Origin: Pseudomonadota bacterium
GTDB lineage: Bacteria; Pseudomonadota; Gammaproteobacteria; Burkholderiales; Thiobacillaceae
Assembly: GCA_021836225.1 (NCBI GenBank)
Contig: JAKBJA010000148.1
Coordinates: forward strand, 1-5,090
Direction of reading: 5' to 3'
DNA: 5,090 nucleotides
The notes beneath the pieces were generated by a model. That model was not told the DNA's origin. It saw nothing but the letters and a program-made list of their open reading frames with translations, and did no database searches. Each line of letters opens with the position of its first letter. Position 1 is the first letter of the stretch. A program made the translations under genes and the position numbers. Positions 1 through 5,074 of this stretch are shown one piece after another.

Positions 1-578
1 CGCGGCTTAATTCCGGCCGCGCGCGCCAGCGAGCCGACGATCTTCAGGCGCGGCTGGAGAAGCGGCTCGCCGAACTTCAGCAGGAGCGTCAGTTATCGGC
101 GATGCCGCCGGTCGTCATCGGCGGCGCTCTGGTCGTTCCCGAGGCAATGGTCGCCACGGTCAATGGCGACACAGCGACAACCGCTGGCGCACAGGCACGC
201 GAAACTGCACGGGTGGAACAAGCAGCGATGGCTGCGGTGATGGAAGCCGAGCGGCGATTGGGCTACCAGCCGCGCGACGTAAGCGCCGACAATTGCGGCT
301 ACGACATCGAGTCTAAGGTCCCCGGCACTGGCCGGCTCCGGTTCATCGAGGTCAAAGGCCGCGCCGCCGGCGCCGACACGGTGACGGTAACGCGCAACGA
401 AATCCTGACCGCCCTCAACAAGCCCGACGAGTTCATTCTCGCGATCGTCGAGGTGGACGGCGATTCGGCCATCCCCCGATACGTCCACCGTCCGTTTCAG
501 AAGGAGCCGGACTTCGCTGCCGCCAGCGTGAACTACCGGCTTAGAGAGATCCTTGCCGAAAGCGAGAAGCCGAGCTGA
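1..578 (+). CDS. Helicase C-terminal end with DUF3883 nuclease-like domain (5' partial)
   Basis: The frame is open from the window edge (first full codon at base 3) to TGA at 576-578, giving 191 visible residues; the start is outside. Residues 6-33 are a charged, coiled-coil-like helix (repeated RxxxLxxRLxEL). A short linker containing PPVVIGGALVVP follows. This helix-linker-DUF3883 order is typical, in my memory, of the ends of large SNF2/DEAD-like helicases in defence loci. Residues about 70-180 form the DUF3883 domain: a helix (VEQAAMAAVMEAERRLGY), then GYDI with D101, then FIEVKGR with E116 and K118. This D...ExK arrangement is that of PD-(D/E)xK (Mrr-like) folds, so DNA cleavage or binding is possible; activity is inference. 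The helicase motor itself is not visible and is inferred from the family ending. The gene lies 57 bp upstream of the TIGR04255 gene on the same strand, probably in the same operon. An alternative is a non-helicase DUF3883 protein. Confidence 0.78.
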   Translation, partial: RLNSGRARQRADDLQARLEKRLAELQQERQLSAMPPVVIGGALVVPEAMVATVNGDTATTAGAQARETARVEQAAMAAVMEAERRLGYQPRDVSADNCGYDIESKVPGTGRLRFIEVKGRAAGADTVTVTRNEILTALNKPDEFILAIVEVDGDSAIPRYVHRPFQKEPDFAAASVNYRLREILAESEKPS

Positions 579-621
579 GGACGGGCGTGCCCGGCGTACG
601 CCGCTCCGTTACAATTGGAGG

Positions 622-626
622 GGAGG
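622..626 (+). promoter_or_regulatory. Shine-Dalgarno site deciding the TIGR04255 start
   Basis: GGAGG lies inside the purine-rich run GGAGGGGAGGAA (617-628), 9 nt before TTG at 636. This spacing is good for TTG 636. It argues against the upstream in-frame TTG at 615, which would sit before and inside the Shine-Dalgarno run. It is the strongest ribosome binding site in the window and falls in the only real intergenic gap (579-635), so the TIGR04255 gene appears to have independent translation initiation, unlike the coupled genes after it. Confidence 0.75.
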
Positions 627-635
627 AACCGCCTC

Positions 636-1391
636 TTGACAACTGCCGAGGAGCACCCAACTTACCCCAATCCGAGCATCCAGGAAGCCATCTGCCAGGT
701 AAGGTTTCGTCTTCCGGGGAACTGGGAACCCCCGTTCTTCGAGCTTTTTTACCGGCAGGTAAAAGATCAGTTCCCCGTGTTCGAGCCGGCCTCGATCGTG
801 GACCTCCAGATGCAGCTCGGCCCCGGGGCGCAAATGGCCCACTTCCTGGCCCCGCCGCGCCCCATGATGCGCTACAAGCGGCGCGACAACATGATGCTGC
901 TCCAGTTGGCTGCCGATTTCCTCACGGTCAACCTGCTGCCGCGCTACCCTGGCTGGGCCGTTATGCGAAGTGCAACGCTGGAGGCTTGGGAGCGGCTATC
1001 GAAAGCGCTTGAGCCGAGCGCGATTGTCCGGATCGGGCTAAGGTACATCAACCGGATCGAGCTGGCCGACGCCGCCGAGTCACCGGGAGGTTGGCTCGCG
1101 CCGAGCGACTACCTCGCCGCGGCCGCCGTTTGCTCGGCCCCAGGCCTGCTCTACCGGCTTGAGTGCCGGCCGGAAGCCCACACGAGCCTTATCGTGACCC
1201 TGGGTGAGGTGCGCCAGCCCGAGCCGAGAGCGCTAATCTTCGACATTGACTGCGTGAGCGACCGGGAGCATCCACCCAAGGCCGAGACAGTGGGGAGCAC
1301 CATTGACGCGCTGCACCGGCAGGCGTGGCAGGTCTTCAGCGCAAGCATGACGCCGCGCCTTCGGGCGCGCCTGGAGGGCCGACAGCCGTGA
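636..1391 (+). CDS. TIGR04255 family protein, function unknown
   Basis: A 251-residue soluble protein, about the usual length of the sporadically distributed TIGR04255 family. The recognisable parts are the N-terminal YPNPSIQEAICQVRF (10-24), a central stretch RYKRRDNMMLLQL running to LPRYPGW (79-107), RIGLRYINRIEL (132-143) and an FDIDC strand (202-206), ending FSASMTPRLRARLEG. No signal peptide, membrane segment or catalytic motif is seen. TTG 636 is chosen as start because GGAGG lies 9 nt upstream and the conserved N-terminal YPNP motif then begins at residue 10; TTG 615 would add seven residues encoded by the Shine-Dalgarno run. The stop TGA (1389-1391) overlaps the next gene's GTG, so both should be translated from one message. 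The family has no established biochemical role that I know of; members turn up in variable regions. Here it sits between a helicase and a DNA methylase, suggesting a defence accessory. Family assignment is from pattern memory, not a search. Confidence 0.8.
   Translation: MTTAEEHPTYPNPSIQEAICQVRFRLPGNWEPPFFELFYRQVKDQFPVFEPASIVDLQMQLGPGAQMAHFLAPPRPMMRYKRRDNMMLLQLAADFLTVNLLPRYPGWAVMRSATLEAWERLSKALEPSAIVRIGLRYINRIELADAAESPGGWLAPSDYLAAAAVCSAPGLLYRLECRPEAHTSLIVTLGEVRQPEPRALIFDIDCVSDREHPPKAETVGSTIDALHRQAWQVFSASMTPRLRARLEGRQP
1373..1377 (+). promoter_or_regulatory. Shine-Dalgarno site for the GTG-started small gene
   Basis: GGAGG lies inside the end of the TIGR04255 gene, 10 nt before GTG at 1388. 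It supports the GTG start over longer in-frame possibilities such as ATG 1325, which lies well inside the TIGR04255 gene and has no comparable site at the proper distance. Confidence 0.6.
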
Positions 1392-1795
1392 ACCAAACTC
1401 CTATCGCCTATCGCAGCTCCAGCGTAGCCTCCGGGGAGCTCCTGCTGGCCCTGGAAACATCGTTGCCCCCCGCGACGCAGAACATTGTCGCGCTGGCTCA
1501 GCTCGATCCCGTGGCAACGACCGGCCCCGATCTGCTCCGCCAGGTTTTATGCCGCCTGTTCGAGTCAGCCTCCGAAGCCGTTTCGGCGTCGGGGCCGGCC
1601 ACGGCGCTGGCAGGGCAAGCCGCAAAGCTTGTGCTGCCCGGCAGCGAAGCGCAGCGGCAAAAGAACCAGCCGGCGATCTCCCTGCTCCGCCAATGGCTGG
1701 CCGAGGACTCCGGCTACGACGAGGCGGTTTGGCCGGAACTCAAACGCTCCGTCGAAGAAAACCGCCTCTCCCCACGCAAGCGCTTCCATGATTAA
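1388..1795 (+). CDS. Small antitoxin-like partner of the downstream PIN protein
   Basis: A 135-residue protein starting at GTG 1388, which overlaps the preceding TGA as GTGA (4 nt) and has GGAGG upstream. The first ~85 residues are helical-looking and Ala/Leu-rich (LLALETSLPPATQNIVALAQL; LLRQVLCRLFESASEAV), without a recognised DNA-binding motif. The last ~40 residues read NQPAISLLRQWLAEDSGY, then W-x-ELKRSVEENRLSPRKRF. This tail (N-x-x-x-I-x-LL-x-x-WL, acidic stretch, W, LK, ENRLS-x-RK-x-F) matches, from memory, the tail of many small proteins encoded immediately upstream of PIN toxins, notably in cyanobacteria. That, together with the 8-nt overlap with the PIN gene, supports a toxin-neutralising role. 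This is an inference: the N-terminal half is unfamiliar and is not an obvious AbrB, RHH or Phd-type repressor. It could instead be an adaptor of the defence complex. Confidence 0.62.
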   Translation: MNQTPIAYRSSSVASGELLLALETSLPPATQNIVALAQLDPVATTGPDLLRQVLCRLFESASEAVSASGPATALAGQAAKLVLPGSEAQRQKNQPAISLLRQWLAEDSGYDEAVWPELKRSVEENRLSPRKRFHD

Positions 1796-2216
1796 GGCGG
1801 TGATGCTCGACAGCGGACCGCTGGGGATGGCCTGCCATCCGAAGCCGAATGCTGACTTCGCCCGCTGGCTTGAAGCGATTTGCGAGGCCGGCGTTACCGT
1901 GATGGTGCCGGAAATCGCCGATTACGAAATCCGCCGGGAGCTCTTGCGCAATGGACTGCAAAAGAGCGTCGAGCGCCTCGATAGCTTTAAGCAAAGCCTG
2001 GTGTATCGCCCCATCAACACCAACGTTATGTTACGCGCTGCCCGGTTCTGGGCGGACGCCAGGAACAGAGGAGTGACAACTGCCCACCCAGCCGCACTCG
2101 ACGGCGATGTCATCCTGGCTGCTCAGGCGCAAGAGGCCGGAGCGCTCGTCGTAACCGACAACCTCGGACATCTTTCTCAATTTGTCGACGCCAGACGCTG
2201 GACAGAGATTCGTTGA
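1788..2216 (+). CDS. PIN-domain ribonuclease, VapC-like toxin
   Basis: A 142-residue single PIN domain, the normal length for a VapC-type RNase. Expected metal-binding acids are present: D8 in VMLDSGPLG, E42/E47 in VPEIADYEIRREL, D105/D107 in LDGDVILAAQA and D124 in VVTDNLGHL, so it looks catalytically intact. By family, PIN toxins are Mg2+-dependent endoribonucleases cutting tRNA, rRNA or mRNA; the target here is unknown. The sequence closely recalls a widespread PIN subfamily (VLDSGPLG, VPEIADYEVRREL, DADVILAAQA, GHLSRF) common in cyanobacteria. ATG 1788 is the first good start and overlaps the upstream small gene by 8 nt; no Shine-Dalgarno is seen, so translation probably depends on reinitiation from the upstream gene, as in toxin-antitoxin pairs. 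Its TGA overlaps the methylase TTG by 4 nt, which ties it to the methylase message rather than leaving it a free-standing module. Confidence 0.85.
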   Translation: MIKAVMLDSGPLGMACHPKPNADFARWLEAICEAGVTVMVPEIADYEIRRELLRNGLQKSVERLDSFKQSLVYRPINTNVMLRAARFWADARNRGVTTAHPAALDGDVILAAQAQEAGALVVTDNLGHLSQFVDARRWTEIR

Positions 2217-5074
2217 CACCCCCAACGCGAAGAAAGCTGATTGAGGTGGCGCTGCCGCTGGAGGAGATCAACAAGCAGGCGGCGCGCGAGAAGTCCATCC
2301 GGCACGGGCATCCGAGCACGCTCCATCTATGGTGGGCGCGACGGCCGCTCGCGGCGTGCCGGGCCGTGCTGTTCGCCCAGCTCGTCGATGATCCCTCGAG
2401 CCATCCCGAGAAATTCCCGACCGAGCAGGCGCAGGAGCAGGAGCGCAAGCGGCTCTTCGGGATAATCGAGAACCTCGTCAAATGGGAGAACTCCAACAAC
2501 GAAGCCGTACTTCATGCGGCGCGCGCCGAGATTCTGAAGTCCTGCGACGGCAACCCGCCGCCGCTGCTGGACCCGTTCTGCGGCGGCGGCTCGATCCCGC
2601 TGGAGGCGCAGCGGCTCGGGCTCAAGGCCCACGCCAGCGACTTGAACCCCGTCGCCGTGCTGATCACCAAGGCGCTGATCGAGATTCCGCCGAAATTCGC
2701 AGGCAAGCCGCCAATCAATCCCCAGGCACGCAACAAGATGATCGCGGGGTCGTACCGTGGCGCGCAGGGACTGGCCGAAGATGTCCGCTACTATGGCAAG
2801 TGGATGCGCGACGAGGCGGAGAAGCGCATCGGCCATCTTTATCCCAGGGTCAAGGTCACGCCCGAGATGGCGAAGTCTCGCGACGACTTGAAGGGCCTGG
2901 TCGGCAGGGAGCTTACCGTAATCGCGTGGCTGTGGGCGCGGACGGTCAGATGCCCGAATCCGGCGTGCGGCGCGATGATGCCGCTGGTGCGCTCGTTTTG
3001 GCTCTCGACCAAGAAGGGCAAAGAGACTTGGGCCGAACCGATCGCGGAAAACGGATCGATTCGGTTCGAGGTGCGCGTAAAGGGCAGCCCGAAGATTGAG
3101 GGGACAGTCAATCGCAAGGGCGCAACCTGCGTCGCCTGCAAATCGCCGGTTCCGTTCGACCATGTACGACGGGAGGGTCGGGCGCACCGGATGTCGGAGA
3201 AGTTGATGACTATCGTGGCTGAAGGCATCCGAGGGCGCATCTACCTCGACGCCAATGACGGGCACGCGCGCGTTGCGGAACGCGCAAACCCAACTTGGCG
3301 CCCCGATTGCGAATTGCCGAAGAAGCATCGCAACTTCCAGACTCCGGCGTACGGCATGCCTAACGTTGGCGATCTCTTCACCCCGCGGCAGTTGGTGGCG
3401 CTGACGACGTTCAGCGATCTGGTGGGCGAGGCGCGCGAGCGCGTGCTCAAGGATGCGCGCGCATCGGGGATGGCCGAGGATCGCAAGGGCATCGACGAGG
3501 GCGGCCTCGGCGCGACAGCCTACGCCGACGCCGTCGCAACATATTTGGCCTTCGCCGTGGACAAAGTCGCCGACCGAAACTCAACCGTCGCAACTTGGGC
3601 AAGCAACAGGGAACACGCGAGAAACACGTTTACAAGACAGGCCTTGGCCATGGCTTGGGACTTCGCCGAGAGCAACGTGTTTTCAGGGTCGAGCGGTAAC
3701 TACGATGGAGGTGTTGACAGTATAGCATCCTTGCTTTTCGACCTGCCCGTTGCCGTCGAAGGCCGCGCCACACAGCTTGACGCGACCGCAGCTATCAACG
3801 GCACTGCGTCGCCTTTTATCTCTACTGACCCGCCTTACTACGACAACATCGGGTACGCAGATCTTTCTGACTTCTTCTACGTATGGCTCCGTCGATCGGC
3901 GGGAAATATTTACGCGCAGCTCTTCAGCACGCTGCTGGTGCCTAAGGCGCAGGAGCTGGTAGCGACTCCGTACCGATTCGAGGGCAGCAAGGAAAAGGCG
4001 CAGCGGTTCTTCGAGGAAAGATTAGGCAAGGCGTTCGCGCGAATGCGCGAGGCGCATAATCCCGCGTATCCCTTAACCGTCTTTTACGCCTTCAAGCAGG
4101 CGGAGGAGGAAGACAACGAAGACGAGGACGAAGCATCTTCGACGCTCGTTTCGACCGGCTGGGAGACAATGCTCGAGGGTTTGATCCGAACGGGATTTCA
4201 GATCACCGGTACTTGGCCGATGCGAACTGAGCTGGCCAGGCGGATGGTGGGCCGCGGCGCCAACGCGCTCGCTTCATCCGTTGTGCTCGCCTGCCGCCAG
4301 CGCCCCGACGATGCCCCGCTCGCTACCCGGCGCGAATTCGTCGAGGCTCTTCGCAACGAGCTTCCCGCCGCGCTCAAGAATCTCCAGCATGGCAGCATCG
4401 CGCCCGTCGATCTGGCGCAGGCCGCGATCGGCCCCGGCATGGCGGTCTTCTCGCGCTACTCGAAGGTGCTCGAAACCGACGGATCGCCGATGCGCGTGCG
4501 GACCGCGCTCGGACTCATCAACCAGGCGCTCGATGAAATCCTCGCCGCGCAGGAGGGCGAATACGACGCGGAGACGCGATGGGCGCTGGCATGGTTCGAG
4601 CAGTACGGAACCGCCGAGGGGAAATTCGGCGACGCCGAAACCCTCTCGCGCGCCAAGGACACCGCGGTCAACGCGCTCGAAGAAGCCGGAATTATCAAGG
4701 CCAAAGCCGGCAAGGTAAAACTCGTCCCTCGCGAAGGCCTGAACGGCGACTGGGACCCGGCCTCGGAGAAGCGGCTGACCATTTGGGAGCTGACGCAACA
4801 TCTGATTCGCGCCTTGGAGACCGGAGGCGAAGCGGCGGCGGCGCGGATCATCCGGCGCGTCAGCTCGTTGGCCGAGACGGCGAAGGACCTGGCCTACCGG
4901 CTCTATACGATATGCGACCGCAAGGGATGGCCGCAGGAGGCGCTCGCCTACAACATGCTGGTAAAATCCTGGCCGGAGCTTCAGAAGCTGGCCGCGAGCA
5001 CCGCCGGGACGGTTTCCGAGCTGCTTTCCGCAACTTCTCCCCCTGCGAGGGGGAGATTAAGAGGGGGTCCTTAG
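2213..5074 (+). CDS. DUF1156 domain DNA adenine-type methyltransferase
   Basis: A 953-residue SAM-dependent methyltransferase. Residues 5-62 are the DUF1156 signature (KLIEVALPLEEIN, REKSIRHGHPSTLHLWWARR). Motif I is DPFCGGGSIPLEA (120-132), with acidic D143 in ASDLNPVAV. The catalytic motif is DPPYYDNIGYADLSDFFYVW (539-558), an (N/S/D)PPY motif typical of exocyclic-amino (N6-adenine or N4-cytosine) methylation. Between them lies a ~390-residue insertion with C247-x4-C252 and C306-x2-C309, a likely zinc ribbon, and probably target recognition. An acidic EEEDNEDEDE patch is at 631-640; the C-terminal ~170 residues look helical. TTG 2213 is used because it overlaps the PIN stop (TTGA) and gives the family N-terminus directly; the Shine-Dalgarno is weak, consistent with translational coupling. 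The role is inferred as self-DNA marking in a defence system; such methylases are often followed by a DUF499 ATPase. The last ~13 residues (TSPPARGRLRGGP) are encoded by a REP-like hairpin and are unlikely to be ancestral. Confidence 0.92.
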   Translation: MTPPTRRKLIEVALPLEEINKQAAREKSIRHGHPSTLHLWWARRPLAACRAVLFAQLVDDPSSHPEKFPTEQAQEQERKRLFGIIENLVKWENSNNEAVLHAARAEILKSCDGNPPPLLDPFCGGGSIPLEAQRLGLKAHASDLNPVAVLITKALIEIPPKFAGKPPINPQARNKMIAGSYRGAQGLAEDVRYYGKWMRDEAEKRIGHLYPRVKVTPEMAKSRDDLKGLVGRELTVIAWLWARTVRCPNPACGAMMPLVRSFWLSTKKGKETWAEPIAENGSIRFEVRVKGSPKIEGTVNRKGATCVACKSPVPFDHVRREGRAHRMSEKLMTIVAEGIRGRIYLDANDGHARVAERANPTWRPDCELPKKHRNFQTPAYGMPNVGDLFTPRQLVALTTFSDLVGEARERVLKDARASGMAEDRKGIDEGGLGATAYADAVATYLAFAVDKVADRNSTVATWASNREHARNTFTRQALAMAWDFAESNVFSGSSGNYDGGVDSIASLLFDLPVAVEGRATQLDATAAINGTASPFISTDPPYYDNIGYADLSDFFYVWLRRSAGNIYAQLFSTLLVPKAQELVATPYRFEGSKEKAQRFFEERLGKAFARMREAHNPAYPLTVFYAFKQAEEEDNEDEDEASSTLVSTGWETMLEGLIRTGFQITGTWPMRTELARRMVGRGANALASSVVLACRQRPDDAPLATRREFVEALRNELPAALKNLQHGSIAPVDLAQAAIGPGMAVFSRYSKVLETDGSPMRVRTALGLINQALDEILAAQEGEYDAETRWALAWFEQYGTAEGKFGDAETLSRAKDTAVNALEEAGIIKAKAGKVKLVPREGLNGDWDPASEKRLTIWELTQHLIRALETGGEAAAARIIRRVSSLAETAKDLAYRLYTICDRKGWPQEALAYNMLVKSWPELQKLAASTAGTVSELLSATSPPARGRLRGGP
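5036..5067 (+). repeat. REP-like palindromic element at the methylase 3' end
   Basis: TCTCCCCC (5036-5043), a 5-nt loop TGCGA and GGGGGAGA (5049-5056) form a perfect 8-bp stem. TTAA and a second GAGGGGG copy (5061-5067) follow. The order palindrome-ATTAA-GAGGGGGT recalls dispersed intergenic repeats frequent in proteobacterial genomes (memory, not a search). It lies inside the coding frame and supplies the last codons. There is no T-run after the stem, so it is not a classic intrinsic terminator, though it may stabilise or attenuate the mRNA before downstream genes. Confidence 0.55.

What the first reader, a model, noticed from the sequence alone, without database searches (positions are those of the whole stretch)
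1..5074. Candidate multi-gene defence operon: helicase-DUF3883, TIGR04255, antitoxin-like, PIN, DUF1156 methylase
Five same-strand genes, three of them joined by 4-8 nt overlaps, combine a helicase ending in a nuclease-like domain, a protein of unknown function, a toxin-antitoxin-like pair and a large DNA methylase. DUF1156 methylases and DUF3883 helicases are known from defence islands, where they commonly occur with a DUF499 ATPase. The specific insertion of TIGR04255 plus small protein plus PIN between helicase and methylase is not an arrangement I recognise from DISARM, BREX or Pgl.
Basis: partly seen in the sequence, partly recalled or inferred. Interest (0 to 1): 0.72.

Follow-up and report, generated by a model that had tools for sequence, protein, structure and literature searches.

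The report
Swappable toxin module inside Hma operon
This DNA carries part of a known bacterial antivirus operon with a three-gene toxin-control module inserted between two of its core genes; relatives of that module carry different toxin-like genes behind one conserved partner gene whose job is unknown.

Summary
In detail: five same-strand genes, the last four joined by 4-, 8- and 4-nt overlaps. The outer genes are hmaA (3' end only) and hmaB of the known Hma system (Type-1 BREX-related). The middle three form a separate module inserted at the hmaA-hmaB junction, a cargo slot: 45 of 58 relatives with both junctions measured carry 300 nt or more there, and the nearest relative carries different cargo. 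The same gene order recurs in one Planctomycetota-sample Hma operon; another has the module between hmaB and hmaC. The TIGR04255 tree separates the three, so I infer independent insertions. Outside Hma, TIGR04255 is often followed by a class-specific small gene and a swappable third gene: PIN, PemK/MazF, HEPN-like, HicA-like, or a class with predicted ADP-ribosyltransferase fold. The two downstream genes co-vary. The window's small protein ends in a tail also found upstream of the same PIN family in cyanobacterial two-gene modules. I read it as a three-gene toxin-antitoxin working like toxin-antitoxin-chaperone systems, with TIGR04255 as hub; no SecB match was found, so its role is unproven. 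No paper in the held library contains the word TIGR04255.

The parts
3..578 (+). 3' end of hmaA (SNF2-type helicase; only the C-terminal 191 aa are in the window), with the NOV_C / DUF3883-type nuclease-like domain at about 213-482
   Evidence: PADLOC HmaA 213 bits to positions 979-1172 of 1176; Pfam NOV_C E 2.4e-24; 85% identical to the L001 hmaA end
579..2212 (+). cargo slot at the hmaA-hmaB junction, filled here by the three-gene module
   Evidence: DNA similarity to the nearest relative L001 covers window 1-572, 2229-3042 and 3377-5001, not this slot; junction lengths in relatives vary from about 0 to 7.7 kb
617..626 (+). purine-rich Shine-Dalgarno-like stretch before the TIGR04255 start
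   Evidence: read directly from the sequence
636..1391 (+). TIGR04255 family gene, proposed hub / control protein of the module
   Evidence: NCBIfam TIGR04255 118.8 bits, cut-off 30; AlphaFold model pLDDT 94.8
1388..1795 (+). small gene, proposed antitoxin; the part coding for residues 90-135 (about 1655-1792) is a PIN-antitoxin-like tail; for residues 1 to about 89 no convincing relative was found
   Evidence: no family; one protein cluster only; tail similar to genes upstream of PIN relatives in cyanobacteria and to a relic in the slot of L056
1788..2216 (+). PIN-domain gene, proposed ribonuclease toxin
   Evidence: Pfam PIN 25.3 bits, cut-off 23.6; 1299 relatives; invariant acids D8, E42, D107
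2213..5074 (+). hmaB, DUF1156 DNA methyltransferase (nucleotide-binding motif DPFCGGG and catalytic motif DPPY)
   Evidence: PADLOC HmaB 1274 bits; DUF1156 113.8 bits; motif names recalled

Best explanation
The window is the hmaA-end/hmaB part of an Hma (Type-1 BREX-related) defence operon whose hmaA-hmaB junction has been filled by a self-contained three-gene toxin-antitoxin module: TIGR04255, small antitoxin, PIN toxin. Proposed working: Hma is the first line (methylate self, cut unmarked DNA). The PIN is a ribonuclease held silent by the small protein, whose C-terminal tail contacts the PIN. TIGR04255 is the constant partner that keeps the antitoxin functional, probably by folding, protecting or assembling it. 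When a phage product or loss of the operon disturbs TIGR04255 or the antitoxin, the PIN is freed, cuts RNA and stops the cell, as a backup. Shown by sequence: gene identities, overlaps, slot variability, recurrence of the module in other Hma operons, swapping of third-gene classes behind TIGR04255, shared antitoxin-like tail. Inferred: toxicity, neutralisation, the role of TIGR04255, the trigger.
For: Hma core. Slot: insert of 300 nt or more at the hmaA-hmaB junction in 54 of 67 loci, and in 45 of 58 against 26 of 58 at hmaB-hmaC. Proteins in the slot include MqsRA, GmrSD, Schlafen, NYN and Abi families. Same module in two more Hma operons: L253 in the A-B slot, L254 in the B-C slot (HmaA, HmaB and HmaC by PADLOC for L253, HmaA and HmaC by PADLOC and HmaB by similarity for L254). 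The TIGR04255 tree places the three apart: window with L086 (99), L172 (=L253) with non-Hma L170 (99), L174 (=L254) with two DUF7689-type rows (100) (quick method, SH-aLRT only). Module outside Hma: L138 and L255. Survey: the next gene starts within 30 nt in 92 of 118, and at a 4-nt overlap in 50 of 118 against 58 of 631 control ORF ends. Third genes by Pfam at E 0.01, of 113: DUF7689 7, PIN 6, PemK 4, HEPN 4, HicA 2; for 115 upstream ORFs no family was matched by more than 2, and the two matched twice are DNA_pol_A and HTH_17. The largest unnamed third-gene class models as an ADP-ribosyltransferase fold. Second and third gene classes co-vary over 111 loci (AMI 0.75, at most 0.15 in 1000 shuffles); the TIGR04255 tree needs 27 class changes for 11 classes (least 10, shuffled mean 60.5). 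Antitoxin-like tail: 9 of 29 genes upstream of cyanobacterial PIN relatives match at E 0.01 or better in that small set.
Against: TIGR04255 gave no SecB match by sequence and SecB is not among the fold rows shown, so a chaperone role is analogy only. No shared domain was found among the small proteins of different classes, so a common TIGR04255-binding part is not seen. The PIN family and tail-type antitoxin also exist without TIGR04255 in the held flanks of cyanobacterial loci, so TIGR04255 may be dispensable for neutralisation. None of the 80 nearest Hma loci shows TIGR04255 in the held DNA, so this cargo is rare in the slot. 26 of 118 surveyed TIGR04255 genes have no next gene within 30 nt, and some third genes are plainly not toxins (dihydroorotate dehydrogenase in 2, beta-lactamase fold in 1). 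HEPN and HicA representatives score below Pfam's cut-offs. The upstream control has an AbiEi antitoxin match in 1 of 115. Third-gene classes of 19 and 9 loci have no family in the representatives tested.
Confidence: 0.6

Rival explanations
1. TIGR04255 is the infection sensor or an enzyme that regulates the toxin, not a helper of the antitoxin: the small protein plus toxin is an ordinary two-gene pair, and TIGR04255 switches it on or off (for example by modifying it).
Confidence: 0.2
2. The module is a parasite of the slot, an addiction cassette that keeps the Hma operon from being lost (or uses it as a protected landing place), with no part in antiphage response.
For: Modules occur free of Hma and TIGR04255 occurs on plasmids. 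An orphan antitoxin-like relic stands in the slot of L056, and L086/L138 carries a probably decayed copy, as expected of selfish pairs.
Against: The insert lies exactly between hmaA and hmaB with translational overlap into hmaB in the window. Three insertions that look independent, all PIN-type, and slot cargo with defence families point to use in defence.
Confidence: 0.15
3. The five genes work as one five-component defence machine in which TIGR04255, small and PIN are obligate parts of Hma.
For: Chained overlaps into hmaB; the same order in L253.
Against: The nearest relative L001 has different cargo; 11 of 67 loci have less than 60 nt between hmaA and hmaB; the module occurs without Hma.
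Confidence: 0.05

Closest known systems
Hma system (PADLOC) = Type-1 BREX-related (BR) system
   Same: HmaA C-terminal end and HmaB match the PADLOC profiles; relatives carry HmaC. PMC12839542 sections 29 and 35 (part 1) describe helicase-nuclease, DUF1156 N6-methyltransferase, DUF499 ATPase, and auxiliary nucleases including PIN inside or next to core loci.
   Different: No paper of the library, this one included, contains the word TIGR04255 (supplements not seen); in what I read there is no such three-gene module. The junction lengths and the swapping were measured here.
Toxin-antitoxin-chaperone (TAC) systems, e.g. Mtb HigBA1-SecB(TA) (PMC5105189, passages) and CmdTAC (PMC11618068, passages)
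   Same: A constant third gene accompanies several unrelated toxin-antitoxin families; the antitoxin has an extra region not present in two-gene relatives; toxins include RNases and an ADP-ribosyltransferase (CmdT).
   Different: TIGR04255 is not recognisably SecB by sequence or in the fold rows shown; the extra part of the window's antitoxin is N-terminal, while the chaperone-addiction part of TAC antitoxins is C-terminal; TIGR04255 comes first in the module.
VapBC-type PIN toxin-antitoxin pairs
   Same: A PIN gene preceded by a small overlapping gene; the antitoxin-like tail is shared with cyanobacterial pairs.
   Different: A third conserved gene upstream, and an N-terminal part of the small protein without a convincing relative.
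Panacea hyperpromiscuous antitoxins (PMC8832971, listing and abstract start only)
   Same: One conserved protein partners with many unrelated toxins.
   Different: There one domain is itself the antitoxin; here the conserved protein stands beside a separate class-specific small gene.

Membership tests
Hma / Type-1 BREX-related | HmaA: SNF2 helicase with C-terminal nuclease domain | tested here: inconclusive
   Only the last 191 aa are in the window; they match HmaA positions 979-1172 and NOV_C. In the six relatives looked at, the matching stretch ends a frame of 1169-1191 aa.
Hma / Type-1 BREX-related | HmaB: DUF1156 DNA methyltransferase | tested here: met
   1274 bits, residues 5-931 of 953; DUF1156
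Hma / Type-1 BREX-related | HmaC: DUF499 ATPase downstream | not testable with these tools
   The window ends 16 nt after hmaB and no genome is held. A relative of HmaC with its N-terminus is found downstream of hmaB in 66 of 80 relatives.
TAC systems | toxin of a known toxin family | tested here: met
   PIN in the window; PIN and PemK above cut-off, HEPN and HicA below it, among relatives
TAC systems | SecB-like chaperone | tested here: inconclusive
   Profile A2 against PDB sequences: 3 rows at E 0.03, 0.44 and 0.51, none named as SecB, one of them unnamed; SecB not among fold rows shown, which does not exclude it
TAC systems | C-terminal chaperone-addiction extension on the antitoxin | tested here: not met
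   The shared antitoxin-like tail reaches the C-terminus; the unmatched part is N-terminal. Not filed as a TAC member.
Type II VapBC | PIN domain with catalytic acids | tested here: met
   D8, E42, D107 invariant over an alignment of 22 sequences including the window; that these are catalytic is recalled
Type II VapBC | antitoxin that neutralises the PIN | not testable with these tools
   Only tail similarity and gene overlap
TIGR04255 | profile score above the curated cut-off | tested here: met
   118.8 bits, cut-off 30
BREX / Pgl | PglZ and BrxC/PglY with PglX | not testable with these tools
   No PglZ or BrxC match in the five proteins, but the window holds only part of the operon; the methyltransferase matches HmaB far better than PglX (1274 against 17.6 bits)
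DISARM | DrmA, DrmB, DrmC set (recalled) | not testable with these tools
   No Drm family among the matches of the five window proteins; flanks not held

The most novel reading that the evidence does not exclude
TIGR04255 is the control hub of an undescribed, widespread class of three-gene toxin-antitoxin systems, unrelated to SecB, in which one conserved protein governs interchangeable antitoxin-toxin pairs (PIN, MazF/PemK, HEPN, HicA, ADP-ribosyltransferase and several unknown effectors). PIN-type versions have been placed repeatedly inside Hma operons as a backup that fires when phage anti-restriction disables Hma.
Probability: 0.35. Interest if true: 0.8.

Novelty: new variant of a known kind. 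Interest (0 to 1): 0.62.

Why it matters
If right, a family that no paper of the held library names becomes the handle on a polymorphic class of toxin-antitoxin systems and on several candidate toxin families without a name, and the core junctions of Hma become a place in which to look for backup effectors. It also gives a testable case of layered defence: a DNA-marking system carrying its own RNase suicide module, and a second design, beside SecB-based TAC, in which a constant protein licenses interchangeable antitoxins.

Tried and rejected
Reading the five genes as one new operon type: rejected, since the outer genes are Hma and the nearest relative has other cargo. Assembly chimera: judged unlikely, since the same order occurs in L253 and the small protein sits on 6 contigs. 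TIGR04255 as SecB: no support found; absence from the rows does not exclude it. TIGR04255 as a guanidino kinase: fold resemblance only, not adopted. A shared domain in the small proteins of the eight larger classes and the window pair: not found. TIGR04255 in viral contigs: 12 pattern matches, none a relative; phages: 1 record of 50,697; plasmids: 4 of 72,556. NCBIfam names for 8 third genes and 2 small proteins: none. PIN relatives in ten handled genomes: only the copy in G015. Literature: TIGR04255 0 papers; DUF7689 0; the combined searches gave 0 papers with at least 3 of their terms; of the 40 papers, 12 were listed and none was read on its account. Shared contig lengths (3341 and 4014) between the TIGR04255 and PIN protein lists suggested common contigs, but chance coincidence is plausible and they are not used.

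Choices that affect counts. The 80 Hma loci are the best 80 of 213 confirmed, so they lean towards the window's type. 13 of 80 had no HelC match upstream, all with hmaB starting 48-1754 nt from the held start, and were dropped from the junction counts. 100 insert ORFs of at least 100 aa were listed and 93 were sent to the family scan; the 7 left out are short minus-strand ORFs. In the TIGR04255 survey 127 loci were held, 122 re-found by my profile, 118 had 500 nt downstream; 27 of the genomes searched first were chosen because they hold Hma. The picker preferred a 4-nt overlap start where one existed, hence the control, whose 631 ORF ends are stop-to-stop frames of 100 codons or more and include spurious ones. 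Loci fetched are the best-scoring ones, and not every listed match became a locus. In the tree 114 rows were used and 95 carry a class; the classes of L127 and L135 (by eye) and L086 (by profile and eye) were set by hand. The upstream control takes one ORF of 70 codons or more on either strand per locus, so some are probably spurious, which weakens it. The Pfam tables show only the first 25 families, so a toxin family matched by a single upstream gene could be hidden. The cyanobacterial E-values are for a set of 29 upstream genes. The chance estimate for two modules in Hma slots (1.6e-6 to 1.4e-5) rests on my round figures (40 modules, 4500 junctions, Hma in 10-30% of genomes) and ignores defence-island clustering; I do not lean on it.
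Full report
What is in the window. Five same-strand genes fill the 5090 bases. Gene 1 (3-578) is the 3' end of hmaA: it matches the last part of the PADLOC HmaA profile with 213 bits and the Pfam NOV_C domain with 85.6 bits. Gene 5 (2213-5074) is hmaB: 1274 bits to PADLOC HmaB and 113.8 bits to DUF1156. Between them lie a TIGR04255 gene (636-1391; 118.8 bits), a small gene without any family (1388-1795) and a PIN gene (1788-2216; 25.3 bits against a cut-off of 23.6). The last four genes are chained by overlaps of 4, 8 and 4 nt, the last of them into hmaB. GC content is 59-65% in the five, so composition does not mark the insert. The window is probably a whole contig: the longest contig holding the small protein has 5090 bases, and no genome is held.

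The frame is a known system. PADLOC's authors named Hma after a helicase, a methylase and an ATPase (PMC8565338, passages found by term). Rakesh and Krishnan renamed it among DUF499-centred BREX-related systems; of PMC12839542 I read sections 28 and 29, the first part of section 35 and passages found by term. Section 35 reports auxiliary nucleases, including PIN, next to or inside such loci, so a PIN near Hma is not new in itself. That paper calls the methyltransferase N6-adenine-type; the PADLOC paper calls it m5C.

The hmaA-hmaB junction is a cargo slot. Of 80 relatives fetched by HmaB (best 80 of 213), 67 show the hmaA end upstream. The distance is under 60 nt in 11, 60-300 in 2, 300-1000 in 9, 1-2 kb in 24, 2-4 kb in 13 and over 4 kb in 8. 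In the 58 loci where both junctions could be measured, an insert of 300 nt or more is present at hmaA-hmaB in 45 and at hmaB-hmaC in 26. Cargo is diverse: among 93 insert proteins Pfam finds HATPase_c_4 in 7, AAA_15 in 6, AAA_21 in 6, Schlafen AlbA_2 in 5, GmrSD_N in 3, NYN in 3, MqsR and MqsA in 2 each, Abi_2 in 1 and others (25 of 68 families shown). The nearest relative, L001 (85% identical at the hmaA end and 78% in HmaB), aligns to the window at DNA level over 1-572, 2229-3042 and 3377-5001 only; its slot holds a protein with an Abi_C domain instead. None of the 80 loci shows TIGR04255 in the held DNA.

The same kind of module sits in other Hma operons. In L253 (from the sample of the phylum of G022, the genome of L056, which is titled Planctomycetota) the order is HmaA, TIGR04255, small, PIN, HmaB, a 101-aa gene, HmaC, on one strand. 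In L254 (same sample) it is HmaA, HmaB, TIGR04255, small, PIN, HmaC, the module being in the second junction. PADLOC confirms HmaA, HmaB and HmaC for L253 and HmaA and HmaC for L254; L254 HmaB rests on 30% identity to the window's. The three TIGR04255 proteins share only 19-26% identity pairwise, and the PINs of L253 and L254 are not of the window's close PIN family. In the TIGR04255 tree each lies with a different partner: window with L086 (SH-aLRT 99), L172 (the L253 gene) with L170 (99), L174 (the L254 gene) with two rows that carry DUF7689 third genes (100) (quick method without bootstrap). L170 is not in an Hma operon (L255). I read this as three independent insertions; that is an inference from the tree. 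Of 30 Hma loci fetched from 294 genomes of that phylum (85 with a match), 2 show TIGR04255 within the held flanks of about 1.5 kb, these same two.

The module also lives alone. L138, from the genome that also holds L036, carries TIGR04255, small and PIN with 4-nt overlaps, among genes that look like housekeeping genes by eye. There an in-frame TAA lies within the family match, before the first Met of the open frame, and the PIN lacks an internal stretch, so that copy is probably decayed. L255 is a second free-standing case. On plasmids TIGR04255 appears in 4 of 72,556 records: near an argonaute-domain gene, VapC, a DNA methylase and cas6 (Thermus), a type I restriction set (Crinalium), a multiubiquitin-ThiF set (Rhizobium) and mobilisation genes (Kocuria).

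TIGR04255 is the constant gene of a polymorphic module. I fetched 127 TIGR04255 loci from six genome searches; 122 were re-found with my own profile and 118 have at least 500 nt downstream. The next gene starts within 30 nt of the TIGR04255 stop in 92 of 118, and at an exact 4-nt overlap in 50 of 118; among other ORF ends in the same loci 58 of 631 have such an overlap start. Clustering the second and third genes of 111 loci gives matching classes: adjusted mutual information 0.75, at most 0.15 in 1000 shuffles. Relatedness of loci contributes to this, but the classes do swap on the TIGR04255 tree: 27 changes for 11 classes, the least possible being 10 and the shuffled mean 60.5 (95 of 114 rows carry a class). 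So classes are inherited for a while and are exchanged repeatedly.

The small protein looks like an antitoxin with an addition. In a cyanobacterial sample 29 of 146 genomes have relatives of the window's PIN. All 30 loci fetched lack TIGR04255 in the held flanks, and 29 have a gene ending close to the PIN start; 9 of these 29 match the C-terminal part of the window's small protein at E 0.01 or better in that small set (best L220, 1.1e-8). An orphan gene with the same tail starts in a 4-nt overlap with the hmaA stop in the slot of L056 (53% over 38 residues). For the first 89 residues of the window's small protein I found no convincing relative, and small proteins of different classes share no domain that profile comparison can see.

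How it most likely works. Hma marks and restricts DNA; the PIN is a silent RNase kept off by the small protein; TIGR04255 licenses the small protein, by analogy with SecB-based TAC systems, where a chaperone protects an antitoxin and, in CmdTAC, capsid protein draws the chaperone away and frees the toxin (PMC5105189 and PMC11618068, passages by term). The analogy covers architecture and toxin variety; TIGR04255 is not shown to be a chaperone, and the extra part of the window's antitoxin is at the other end from the TAC addiction sequence. I give this reading 0.6 as a whole: what the parts are is close to certain, the role of TIGR04255 is not.

Novelty. No paper in the held library contains the word TIGR04255 (subscription journals are mostly absent and bioRxiv is not held), and two combined phrase searches gave nothing. 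The slot and its nucleases fit what section 35 of PMC12839542 describes in general. The new points are the TIGR04255-centred module with interchangeable toxin-like genes and its repeated placement inside Hma.

Noticed in passing
window 3043-3376: Within hmaB, DNA similarity to L001 breaks between 3042 and 3377 while both sides align at 82-88%; this may be the target-recognition insert of the methyltransferase, diverged between close relatives.
   Followed up: no
L056:6552-6788: In a 4-nt overlap with the hmaA stop, an orphan small gene ends in the same PIN-antitoxin-like tail as the window's small protein, with no PIN of that family found in the locus: perhaps a relic of an earlier cargo.
   Followed up: partly
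L107:609-1001 and the rest of a class of 30 loci: The commonest third gene behind TIGR04255 has no Pfam or NCBIfam name in the members tested, but its model matches the ADP-ribosyltransferase fold.
   Followed up: partly
L100:593-1033 and six more loci: DUF7689 proteins occur as third gene in 7 of 113 TIGR04255 modules, which suggests a toxin or effector role for that family.
   Followed up: no
L047:7922-9986: Another Hma A-B slot holds a NYN gene, an unnamed 268-aa gene and a PIN gene overlapping it by 4 nt: a different PIN arrangement in the same place.
   Followed up: partly
L159, L173, L178: TIGR04255 matches lie in open frames of 456, 517 and 425 codons, possibly fusions.
   Followed up: no
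hmaB-hmaC junction of 58 relatives: A second cargo place: 26 of 58 loci carry 300 nt or more there; L254 carries the TIGR04255-PIN module there.
   Followed up: partly
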